Below, piece after piece: positions 5,975 to 9,274 of a stretch of DNA of 54,717 bases; the first letter of the stretch is position 1, and each line of letters opens with the position of its first letter. Made by a program: the position numbers and the translations under genes. The notes beneath the pieces are model-generated. The model was not told the origin of the DNA. It searched no databases and saw only the letters and a list, made by a program, of their open reading frames with translations. The DNA is from Bdellovibrionales bacterium (GTDB taxonomy: Bacteria; Bdellovibrionota; Bdellovibrionia; Bdellovibrionales; UBA1609): the NCBI GenBank assembly GCA_020850475.1, contig JADZEO010000119.1, positions 1-54,717 on the forward strand, given 5' to 3'.

Positions 5975-7696
5975 TTAGGCCCGCGGGAGACTGGTGAGGT
6001 CGCGGGCCGCCTTGGGACTTAAGAGAACATCCTTAAGGGCCTGCAGTAAGTAGCGATTCGACAAAAAGATTTCACGATTCACGTTGAGGAAGGTCGCGGC
6101 TGTTTCCGCAAAAGTGGATTTTTGTCCGGCTCGTTGATAGACCCAAGAAGCAACCTTTTTGTTAGCGGCTTCGTTGGATTCGATCAACCCCGCGAGCTGT
6201 TCAAAGCGAGCTTGCTCATCATCAATCGACCATAGGCGCTCAATCCCGTCTTGTAGTGGAGAGTAGTCTTGCCGCAATTCTTTTTGAAGAGTTTCGACGT
6301 CTTCACTAATGGATTGTTCGAATTCTTTCAGATTGTGTTGAATGTCTTTAACGGCTTTGGCGGATTGAACGGCGTTTCGCAAAGCCAGGATGAGTTGCTG
6401 AAGCTCAGTGGAACTCTCGGGATCCATCTTTTGTTGTTGGATGGTGGTTAAATAAGTAATGAGTTCGCCTTCCGCTTTTTTGAGGTGATCATACTCGCCG
6501 GCCAGATCCTCGCTGGCCAAAATGAGGTTGAGAATTCCCAATGGGCTTGGTGTGTTTTTAGTGGAAGGCGCAAGTCCTAAAAGGGCACTGTTAAAGCGGA
6601 AAACCTCCTGACTGAGTTGTGTCAGTTCACGTTTGGCCGCGGCCAGGGCCGCCTCCGGGACCTCGGAATTGACCTGATGGATAAAGTGACAAGCGTGTGC
6701 ATGGTTTTTGGTAAATAACCTCATCAGAAAGGATTCGAAGGTTCCGAGCAAGGGGATGAAGACGAGAATTCCAATTAAATTAAAACTACTGTGGAAAGCG
6801 ACGAGCCGATAGAGGGGATTTTCAAGAGAGTCGAAGCGACCAAGAAGTTCAAGCAGGACGGGTAAGCCAGCTAGAGTGGCAAGCGCGGTGACAACATTAA
6901 ATAGAAAATGAGCCGTCGCAATCCGCTTTTTCGTGGGAGTCCCGCCCACTGCACCAATGAGTGCCGTCGCCGTGGTGCCGAGATCGGCGCCCACGATGAG
7001 GGCCGCAGCGTTTTCAAAGCCCACAATCCCCGAGTGCAGTGCACTCAGGGTAATCATCATCGTCGCCGCGCTGGATTGTATGACGGAGGTAAAGAGGGCT
7101 CCGAACAGAAAAAATATGCCCACACCCCACTGTGGAATCAGACTGAGGTCGGTCTGACTGGCAAAGGATGAAACGCTGACTCGCATGAAATCAAGTCCCA
7201 TAAAGAGCAGGCCCAGGCCGGCAAAGAACGCGAGGAGGTGGTAAAAGCGAAATCGCGGCCCGAGAAAGGCCAAGCCGCTGCAGCCGATTCCCAGCAGCGG
7301 TAAGACAAACTGATTGAGGTCAACTTCAAATCCCACCGTTGCCACAATCCAACCCGTAAACGTCGATCCCAAGTTGGCCCCCAGGATGATTCCGAGGGCA
7401 TTGCGAAGCGTGATGATCTCGGCTCCCGCAAAGGCCAGAACCAAGAGAGTGACAACGGAACTTGATTGAAGGATCGCCGTTGAGACAATTCCGTTAACGA
7501 TCGCCACGAAACGGTTGGTTGTGTAGTCTTTCAGCAGACGGCGAAATGACCGTCCGGCTAATTCTTTGAGGGACTCCTCGATTCGGGTCATCCCAAACAA
7601 GAACAGACCGAGACCGGCAAGAAACTTCCAAGTGTCAATCGTGCCCACGATCGAGGGGCTTTCCTGACTGTTTAAATTGAATGATGGGAAGTCCAT
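5975..7696 (-). CDS. Na/Pi cotransporter family protein with PhoU-like tail
   Basis: A protein of up to 573 residues with two copies of the Na/Pi-cotransporter repeat: first copy with QSSS (77-80) and GANLGST, second copy with VIQSSAATM and GADLGTT. About eight hydrophobic helices precede a long soluble helical region (about 340-573) like the PhoU-type domain of bacterial NptA-like proteins. It would move phosphate with sodium across the inner membrane, with the tail as a possible regulator. The start is ambiguous. ATG 7696 overlaps the rhodanese gene by 62 bases and has a GGAAGG only three bases before it. GTG 7648 overlaps by 14 bases and lies behind AGGAAAG. The shorter start would still keep every membrane segment. 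Confidence 0.88.
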   Translation of the reverse strand: MDFPSFNLNSQESPSIVGTIDTWKFLAGLGLFLFGMTRIEESLKELAGRSFRRLLKDYTTNRFVAIVNGIVSTAILQSSSVVTLLVLAFAGAEIITLRNALGIILGANLGSTFTGWIVATVGFEVDLNQFVLPLLGIGCSGLAFLGPRFRFYHLLAFFAGLGLLFMGLDFMRVSVSSFASQTDLSLIPQWGVGIFFLFGALFTSVIQSSAATMMITLSALHSGIVGFENAAALIVGADLGTTATALIGAVGGTPTKKRIATAHFLFNVVTALATLAGLPVLLELLGRFDSLENPLYRLVAFHSSFNLIGILVFIPLLGTFESFLMRLFTKNHAHACHFIHQVNSEVPEAALAAAKRELTQLSQEVFRFNSALLGLAPSTKNTPSPLGILNLILASEDLAGEYDHLKKAEGELITYLTTIQQQKMDPESSTELQQLILALRNAVQSAKAVKDIQHNLKEFEQSISEDVETLQKELRQDYSPLQDGIERLWSIDDEQARFEQLAGLIESNEAANKKVASWVYQRAGQKSTFAETAATFLNVNREIFLSNRYLLQALKDVLLSPKAARDLTSLPRA

Positions 7697-8069
7697 GGGC
7701 CTTCCAATCTTTGAGTCCGCCGATATTAAAGACCTGAGTGAAGCCCTCTTTCTCGAGCTGAGTTTTTATTTTTCCGGCGCGGCCGCCGCCGCGGCAGTAA
7801 AGATAAATGGGCTGATCTTTTTTGGTGCGTTTAACAAATGCTTGCCAGCCGTCACGCCGACTTTCGGCCACACTGGTGGGAAGCCAGAGAGCTCCTTGGG
7901 CCAGTCCTTCTTTGGTGAGTTCATCTTCTTCGCGCAAATCGACGAGCACGGCCTCGTCTTTTTTAACTTGGTCATAGATCTTCTGAAAATCAAACGCCTC
8001 GGCGGCCCTCGCGAGGGCGCTGAAGCTAAAAATCACCAGGCAGAACATTTTTGCGGATCGTCCTAACAT
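7635..8069 (-). CDS. Exported rhodanese-like protein
   Basis: A 144-residue single-domain rhodanese. Residues 1-25 form a signal peptide ending ARAAEA. The domain shows the entry motif VLVDLREEDE (about 41-50) and the active-site loop CRGGGRAG with Cys92 as the sulfur-carrying residue. Single-domain periplasmic rhodaneses move sulfane sulfur or take part in redox chemistry; the natural partner is unknown. Its 3' end overlaps the Na/Pi cotransporter gene and it follows the MarC gene by 13 bases, so the genes probably share a transcript. Confidence 0.88.
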   Translation of the reverse strand: MLGRSAKMFCLVIFSFSALARAAEAFDFQKIYDQVKKDEAVLVDLREEDELTKEGLAQGALWLPTSVAESRRDGWQAFVKRTKKDQPIYLYCRGGGRAGKIKTQLEKEGFTQVFNIGGLKDWKAHGLPIIQFKQSGKPLDRGHD

Positions 8070-8082
8070 AAAACACCTCGGA

Positions 8083-8718
8083 TTAGATTTTTAACATCTT
8101 GTGAATGTAGGGAGTAAGCCCCTTAAAGAAATACTCCACCGCAATCATCATTAAGATGAGTCCCATCAGGCGAAAGAAAACCTTGCTACCACTCTTTCCC
8201 ATGAATTTAAGCAAAGGCTTAGAGGCCACCAGGATAAAATAGGTCGCCAGGCTAACCAAAGCAAAACACCCAAACAAGATCGCCCTTTGGGCAAACGAAT
8301 GAGCCTCTTGAATCAACACAATGGTGACCGTGATGGTGCCCGGCCCACAAATCATTGGGATGGCAAGTGGAGTAACGGCAAATTCTTGAATCTCCGAAGT
8401 CTCGGCATGAGAGACTGTTTTGATCCGTGAATTGCGGCCCTTTAAAAGATCGTAACCGGTGAGAAAAAACAACACTCCGCCAACGACCCGCAAACCGTCG
8501 ACGGAAATATTAAAAAAATTAAATACAAGTTTACCCGTCAGAGCAAAGAGAATCATGGCCGCAAAAGCAGTTAAAACCGCCGTGCGCGCCACCCGAATGG
8601 CCTGAATTCGCTTCACCGACTCGGTATAGGCCGAGTAAGTGGGGATACAGCCGATGGGATTTACGATCGTGAACAAGCTGGTAAATACCAAAAGGAAATA
8701 ACCAAAATGATCTTTCAT
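8083..8718 (-). CDS. MarC family integral membrane protein
   Basis: A 211-residue protein with about six hydrophobic helices. It starts with the family-like FTSLFTIVNPIGCIPTYSAYT region and contains the internal repeat (GGVLFFLTGYDLLKG, then PLAIPMICGPGTITVTIVL). This repeat pattern with NPIG and a Pro-rich half-helix is typical of MarC/UPF0056 proteins of the inner membrane, whose transport role is not settled. The length is normal. It ends 13 bases before the rhodanese start and follows the histone-fold gene by 10 bases. Confidence 0.9.
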   Translation of the reverse strand: MKDHFGYFLLVFTSLFTIVNPIGCIPTYSAYTESVKRIQAIRVARTAVLTAFAAMILFALTGKLVFNFFNISVDGLRVVGGVLFFLTGYDLLKGRNSRIKTVSHAETSEIQEFAVTPLAIPMICGPGTITVTIVLIQEAHSFAQRAILFGCFALVSLATYFILVASKPLLKFMGKSGSKVFFRLMGLILMMIAVEYFFKGLTPYIHKMLKI

Positions 8719-8728
8719 TGGGATTCGT

Positions 8729-9274
8729 TCACCTTTTGAAATCGCGTTCCATCACCGTTTTACGTCCATCGTCGCGCGCCGAATCGATCGCTTCATCGCA
8801 AAGTCGCCGGATATGGTGAGACAAGATTTGTAATACTTCGGCCGACATATTCATTTCAGAACGACGGCGGATGTAGTCCTTCACTTTGGATGCGACCACC
8901 AGCACTTCAAATTCCGCTGAGGCAGCCACGGCAGTGCTAGAAGCCTGAGCGGGTCGTTGGGTCGGAATAATCTTGCGAGGACCGGCAGCAGGGGGCGTTG
9001 ACAGCGCCGTTGCAGTCGAGCTGGCAGCAGCTTCCGCCGAGAGTTCCTTTTGCCATTGTTCTTGACTGGGCGCGAGTTCTTCGACGGCATAGGCGTCGCG
9101 GTGGCGCGCTCCCGGCAGGTGTTGTTCAAAACACGGAATTGAGCAAAACACCAAGCCCGTTCGTTTGCGATTACAAGTGGAGACGTTGCACTGATAATAA
9201 GCCTGGCGATAGGGAATTTCTTTTTTGCAGTTGCTACACTTACGCCAAAATTGCGGAGAGATTTCCATACTCAT
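8729..9274 (-). CDS. Zinc-finger / histone-fold fusion protein (bacterial histone)
   Basis: A 181-residue protein in three parts. Residues 13-58 hold a Cys/His zinc-binding motif with Cys13, Cys16, Cys29, Cys34, Cys44, Cys48 and possible ligands His52 and His58. Residues 70-120 are an Ala/Pro/Ser-rich linker. Residues 122-181 look like a histone fold: a short helix starting VVASKVKDYIRRR, the MNMSAE turn, a long amphipathic helix to about 168, the DDGRKTV loop with the Arg-Lys-Thr typical of histone loop 2, and a short third helix. Prokaryotic histones, including one in Bdellovibrio, and zinc-finger-bearing variants are known from recent literature; the assignment here is by pattern only. It probably binds DNA as a dimer, with the finger recruiting a partner. 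No clear Shine-Dalgarno precedes ATG 9274. Confidence 0.75.
   Translation of the reverse strand: MSMEISPQFWRKCSNCKKEIPYRQAYYQCNVSTCNRKRTGLVFCSIPCFEQHLPGARHRDAYAVEELAPSQEQWQKELSAEAAASSTATALSTPPAAGPRKIIPTQRPAQASSTAVAASAEFEVLVVASKVKDYIRRRSEMNMSAEVLQILSHHIRRLCDEAIDSARDDGRKTVMERDFKR

What the first reader, a model, noticed from the sequence alone, without database searches (positions are those of the whole stretch)
8729..9274. Zinc-finger domain fused to a bacterial histone fold
Residues 13-58 hold a Cys/His zinc-binding pattern and residues 122-181 read as a histone fold, including the Arg-Lys-Thr loop 2. Bacterial histones are rare and zinc-finger-bearing variants rarer. It could be a chromatin protein that recruits a partner. 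The link between domains is a long Ala/Pro/Ser linker. The fold assignment is by eye.
Basis: partly seen in the sequence, partly recalled or inferred. Interest (0 to 1): 0.75.

Follow-up and report, generated by a model that had tools for sequence, protein, structure and literature searches.

The report
Zinc-finger bacterial histone (ZZ histone)
This gene encodes a real bacterial histone with a zinc-binding domain at its front end, a kind of protein already described in predatory bacteria, but related genomes show that the two halves also exist as separate or single genes, which points to an independent job for the zinc domain.

Summary
The minus-strand ORF 8729-9274 (181 aa) has a binuclear Cys/His finger (C13 C16 C29 C34 C44 C48 H52 H58), a disordered linker and a short-alpha3 histone fold (about 123-180). 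The histone part matches crystallised Bdellovibrio HBb (phmmer 4e-13; Foldseek 5e-5, TM 0.89). All eight ligand positions hold in 127 relatives, two with Asp at C44. It is not a new kind of protein: Schwab et al. 2024 named this architecture 'ZZ histones'. Most likely it is a DNA-binding dimer carrying two tethered fingers that bind an unknown partner; DNA contacts are mostly conserved, the partner is inferred. Beyond what I found in the literature: (1) the finger also occurs without a histone fold, alone or with a VILRR-like tail; (2) all 15 genomes with tailed fingers carry a separate histone gene (the 10 read are ZZ-type), whereas 6 genomes with a lone finger have no detectable histone; (3) in one genus the finger is absent at the syntenic locus of four species; (4) the linker often holds a short R[RK][IV][IV] motif. 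The finger is nearest to eukaryotic ZZ domains by fold, but weakly, and Pfam's ZZ model does not hit it.

The parts
8729..9274 (-). Whole gene: 181-aa ZZ-type histone (finger, linker, histone fold), stop codon included
9065..9247 (-). ZZ-like binuclear zinc finger, residues 10-70 (ligands C13 C16 C29 C34 C44 C48 H52 H58)
   Evidence: ligand conservation; models; Foldseek
9005..9064 (-). Confidently predicted helix after the finger, residues 71-90
8909..9004 (-). Disordered Ala/Pro/Ser-rich linker, residues 91-122
   Evidence: pLDDT about 52-66; 18% mean identity to relatives against 60-62% in the two domains
8969..8980 (-). Short linear motif R99-K100-I101-I102 in the linker (family form R[RK][IV][IV])
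   Evidence: 50 of 72 relatives against a shuffled mean of 3.5 (max 10)
8735..8908 (-). alpha3-truncated histone fold, residues 123-180, with DNA-contact equivalents S129 K130 K132 S144 A145 K172 T173 R177

Best explanation
It is a ZZ histone. The C-terminal histone fold dimerises and binds the DNA backbone at the minor groove much as HBb does. Each chain then holds out, on a flexible linker of about 30 residues, a two-zinc ZZ/MYND-like finger and a short basic-hydrophobic motif. The dimer would thus be a DNA-tethered bivalent adaptor that brings a partner protein (or a second nucleic acid) to the nucleoid. Shown here: architecture, ligand conservation, predicted folds, conservation of most DNA contacts, existence of the finger without the histone. 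Inferred: zinc binding, dimerisation, DNA binding, and that the finger binds a partner.
For: Histone identity. Of ten HBb residues reported to contact DNA (PMC11317129: T8, S9, K10, K12, T23, S24, A25, K52, T53, R57) the window keeps eight (S129, K130, K132, S144, A145, K172, T173, R177) and differs at two (A128, M143). Ligand positions kept in all relatives. Finger and histone fold are about equally conserved (62% and 60% mean identity) while the linker is not (18%). The finger evolves as its own unit: alone or with a tail in 27 of 127 distinct finger proteins read, with no histone fold in any frame of those loci. Fused in some lineages and split in others: all 15 genomes with tailed fingers have a separate histone gene, and the 10 of these that were read are 63-86% identical to ZZ-histone domains. 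The linker motif exceeds chance.
Against: No partner is found: no gene neighbour recurs across the family. Six genomes keep the lone finger with no detectable histone, so the finger's job need not involve chromatin. Published data report low expression of the B. bacteriovorus ZZ histone, and the same authors judge it unlikely that the finger reads histone tails (PMC11390915). Zinc, dimer and DNA binding are untested.
Confidence: 0.55

Rival explanations
1. The finger and linker are extra nucleic-acid-binding elements: the protein bridges or loops DNA (or ties RNA to DNA) by histone fold plus basic finger, with no protein partner.
For: The finger is net positive (+4 in the window, median +4 in fused and +5 in histone-less forms); the linker and tail motifs are basic.
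Against: The nearest folds are ZZ and MYND domains, which mostly bind peptides (general knowledge).
Confidence: 0.25
2. It is an ordinary minor nucleoid protein in which the finger has only a structural, stability or zinc-responsive role.
For: Low expression reported for the B. bacteriovorus ZZ histone (PMC11390915). In genus g140, four genomes lack the finger yet keep the histone at the syntenic locus.
Against: The finger is as conserved as the histone fold, keeps all ligand positions and persists without the histone.
Confidence: 0.12
3. The histone fold is not a nucleoid protein here but a dimerisation scaffold, as in eukaryotic TAFs, and DNA binding is incidental.
For: B. bacteriovorus has an abundant HBb as well, and Bd3044 cannot readily compensate for loss of Bd0055 (PMC10627809).
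Against: DNA-contact residues are largely conserved across the family. In some genomes (e.g. f16 g76) only one histone match is found in a genome with a finger match, both in an open frame of about 160 codons.
Confidence: 0.08

Closest known systems
ZZ histones (Schwab et al. 2024, PMC11390915; example D0LYE7 of Haliangium ochraceum; the B. bacteriovorus member is most likely Bd3044)
   Same: N-terminal binuclear ZZ-like finger with C4 and C2H2 sites, C-terminal alpha3-truncated bacterial-dimer-like histone fold, overlapping lineages.
   Different: Nothing that excludes membership. The window's fourth C4 ligand is C48 (FCSxxC), whereas the paper lists C53 of D0LYE7, which by offset would fall at residue 46. 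The linker motif and the histone-less forms are not mentioned in the passages read.
HBb / Bd0055, bacterial-dimer histone (8cmp, 8fvx, 9f0e)
   Same: Histone fold, RKT loop, most DNA contacts; 52% identity in the structural alignment.
   Different: HBb has no finger. The five HBb-type histones read form one clade (SH-aLRT 99) apart from ZZ-type histone domains. The window genome also has its own HBb-type gene.
Eukaryotic ZZ domains (p62, PRT1, KCMF1, p300)
   Same: Closest folds of the finger in the PDB: 5yph probability 0.84, target TM 0.62.
   Different: E-values only 0.13-0.6; no Pfam ZZ match; reported not to share binding-pocket residues (PMC11390915).
MYND, HIT and FCS-type treble-clef fingers
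   Same: FCSxxCxxxH signature; weak Pfam hits to zf-FLZ, zf-FCS and zf-HIT; MYND and SMYD2 folds next in rank.
   Different: All Pfam hits weak (best E 0.002 among 72 members); the last two ligands are His-His.

Membership tests
ZZ histones | N-terminal two-zinc finger with C4 + C2H2 ligands | tested here: met
   C13 C16 C44 C48 and C29 C34 H52 H58; all positions present in 127 of 127 relatives, two with Asp at C44. Zinc itself not measured.
ZZ histones | Finger structurally similar to eukaryotic ZZ domains | tested here: inconclusive
   ZZ domains are the best PDB hits, but E is at least 0.13.
ZZ histones | C-terminal bacterial-dimer-like histone fold | tested here: met
alpha3 histones | alpha3 helix of only 3-4 residues | tested here: met
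   DSSP helix 176-178 in the model
alpha3 histones | RxTxxxxD motif | tested here: met
   R171-K172-T173-V-M-E-R-D178; R171, T173 and D178 invariant in 72 sequences
Bacterial-dimer histones (HBb) | Histone fold without extra domains | tested here: not met
   Finger and linker present; HBb-type forms a separate clade
Bacterial-dimer histones (HBb) | DNA-bending dimer | not testable with these tools
   Dimer prediction and DNA binding not available here; contact residues mostly conserved
Pfam ZZ (PF00569) | Profile match above the curated cut-off | tested here: not met
   No match at E up to 10 in the genome; not among the 25 families listed for the finger set

The most novel reading that the evidence does not exclude
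The conserved functional unit is the finger plus a short basic-hydrophobic motif, an autonomous adaptor, and the histone fold is an optional DNA tether that is either fused to it or encoded separately. Finger and histone have been fused, split or lost repeatedly across Bdellovibrionota, so the 'ZZ histone' is one arrangement of a wider two-component system.
Probability: 0.4. Interest if true: 0.6.

Novelty: new member of a known kind. Interest (0 to 1): 0.4.

Why it matters
I found no experimental study of what a ZZ histone does in the papers searched. Finding the finger split from, and surviving without, the histone makes its role testable: the same finger can be studied alone, with its tail, and fused, and the split genomes predict that the finger protein and the separate histone act together. 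It would also show how a bacterial chromatin protein gains and loses an accessory module.

Tried and rejected
Gene neighbourhood as a clue to function: no neighbour family recurs across the loci beyond close relatives (at most 7 of 79 loci, mostly generic genes). A phage or plasmid origin: no phage hit, one weak plasmid histone hit without the finger, three viral contigs with histone-only matches. The finger as a plain Pfam ZZ domain: not supported by profile. Histone-less fingers as frameshift artefacts: a histone HMM run on all six frames of those loci with filters off found nothing below E 0.19. Singlet histones of the split genomes as HBb: rejected for those read, they are nearer to ZZ-type domains. 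A tRNA upstream of the gene: none found. The finger and histone trees have too few columns to fix the number of losses or splits. A Myxococcota-wide genome search could not be set up with the tool.

Full report
What is there. The minus-strand ORF 8729-9274 encodes 181 residues. phmmer against the PDB matches residues 123-179 to HBb of Bdellovibrio bacteriovorus at E about 4e-13; a family profile gives 2.5e-19. Pfam's histone model is sub-threshold on its own (E 0.0023), so a Pfam scan at its curated cut-off would miss it.

Structure. AlphaFold2 with 72 relatives gives a confident finger (block means of pLDDT mostly 90-98), a helix at 71-90, a disordered linker and a histone fold with alpha1 128-139, alpha2 145-168 and a three-residue alpha3. 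Foldseek's best hits are HBb (9f0e, E 5.4e-5, target TM 0.89), then Leptospira HLp and Thermococcus HTkC. The finger modelled alone is nearest to ZZ domains (5yph probability 0.84, target TM 0.62), then MYND, but with E of 0.13 or more. Pfam's ZZ profile finds nothing in this genome and is not among the families listed for the finger set. 'ZZ-like' is therefore a statement about fold, not about profile.

Conservation. In 72 aligned sequences C13 C16 C29 C34 C48 H52 H58, R171, T173 and D178 are invariant and C44, K172 and R177 nearly so. In 127 distinct finger proteins all eight ligand positions are kept, with Asp at C44 in two. Mean identity to the window is 62% in the finger, 60% in the histone fold and 18% in the linker. 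Eight of ten reported HBb DNA contacts (PMC11317129) are kept in the window; A128 and M143 differ.

Known family. Schwab et al. 2024 (PMC11390915) define ZZ histones with this architecture and report low expression of the one in B. bacteriovorus HD100. Hocher et al. 2023 (PMC10627809) describe Bd3044 as the longer of two B. bacteriovorus histones and say it cannot readily compensate for Bd0055. That Bd3044 is that ZZ histone is my inference from the papers; I did not align it. By the tests made here the window protein belongs to the family.

Spread. In 148 relatives the protein matches in 133, many only through HBb-type histones; the finger is in 60. Across 369 genomes of the phylum the finger is in 174 and a histone in 329. 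Named genomes include Bdellovibrionota, Myxococcota, Binatota and one Planctomycetota-labelled MAG. The window's genome also has an HBb-type gene and a third, weak histone match.

Modularity. Of 127 distinct finger proteins read, 100 are fused, 12 are finger only and 15 are finger plus a tail ending in a VILRR-like motif. These 127 were partly chosen to look at short ORFs, so the proportion is not a frequency. A histone HMM on all six frames of the 27 histone-less loci found no fold. The tail motif is in 12 of 15 against a shuffled mean of 0.07; the linker motif is in 50 of 72 fused proteins against a shuffled mean of 3.5. Related sequences are not independent and the patterns were written after seeing the sequences, so these ratios overstate the evidence. 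Homology of linker and tail motifs is not shown.

Split and lost forms. All 15 genomes with tailed fingers have exactly one histone match, outside the finger gene. Ten of those histone genes were read (L195-L200, L203-L205, L210; not G303, G325, G328, G337, G349): they are 63-86% identical to the nearest ZZ-histone domain and at most 58% to the HBb types. Six lone-finger genomes (G145, G286-G290) show no histone match. In genus g140, four genomes (G307, G311, G312, G315) have a histone-only gene and no finger match. Its upstream GGDEF-type neighbour is 55-80% identical to the gene upstream of fused loci L072, L083, L094, L097, L100 and L110, and the histone domains are up to 90-98% identical to fused ones, so this is one locus with and without the finger.

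Mechanism. The best reading is a DNA-bound dimer carrying two tethered fingers that bind something else. Fusion in some lineages and separation in others is a classic hint of functional linkage. Persistence of the finger without a histone argues that its target is not only a histone.

Limits. Trees rest on about 60-72 columns and are poorly resolved, so the number and direction of fusions, splits and losses is open. Zinc binding, dimerisation and DNA binding were not measured. 'No histone' in a draft genome can be an assembly gap. The statement that histone-less forms are unreported rests on the papers found by four searches, not on their supplements.

Noticed in passing
L145-L148, L151-L158: Lone zinc-finger proteins, about 65-80 residues, with no histone fold nearby; nine of the twelve come from one family of genomes (f13).
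   Followed up: partly
L163-L169, L176-L180, L187-L189: Finger proteins with a disordered tail ending in a [VI][IL][LIV]R[RK]-like motif; each genome also has one separate histone gene.
   Followed up: partly
L191-L194: In genus g140 a histone-only gene with its own ATG sits at the locus where other species of the genus have the finger-histone fusion (same upstream GGDEF-type gene).
   Followed up: partly
window 8969-8980, and linkers of relatives: Short R[RK][IV][IV] motif in an otherwise diverged, disordered linker.
   Followed up: partly
G000:C65:20362-20529, L213: Third, divergent histone-like ORF (91 codons, E 1.4e-7) in the window's genome.
   Followed up: no
L112-L114: Three IMG/VR contigs encode histone-fold matches (35-44% identity) without the finger.
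   Followed up: no
window 5975-8718: MarC, rhodanese and Na/Pi-cotransporter genes follow on the same strand with 10-13 base gaps or an overlap, so the histone may head an operon here; the order is not conserved elsewhere.
   Followed up: partly
PMC11390915: The published ligand list (C51, C53 in D0LYE7) does not fit the C44/C48 spacing found here by simple offset; D0LYE7 itself was not aligned.
   Followed up: no
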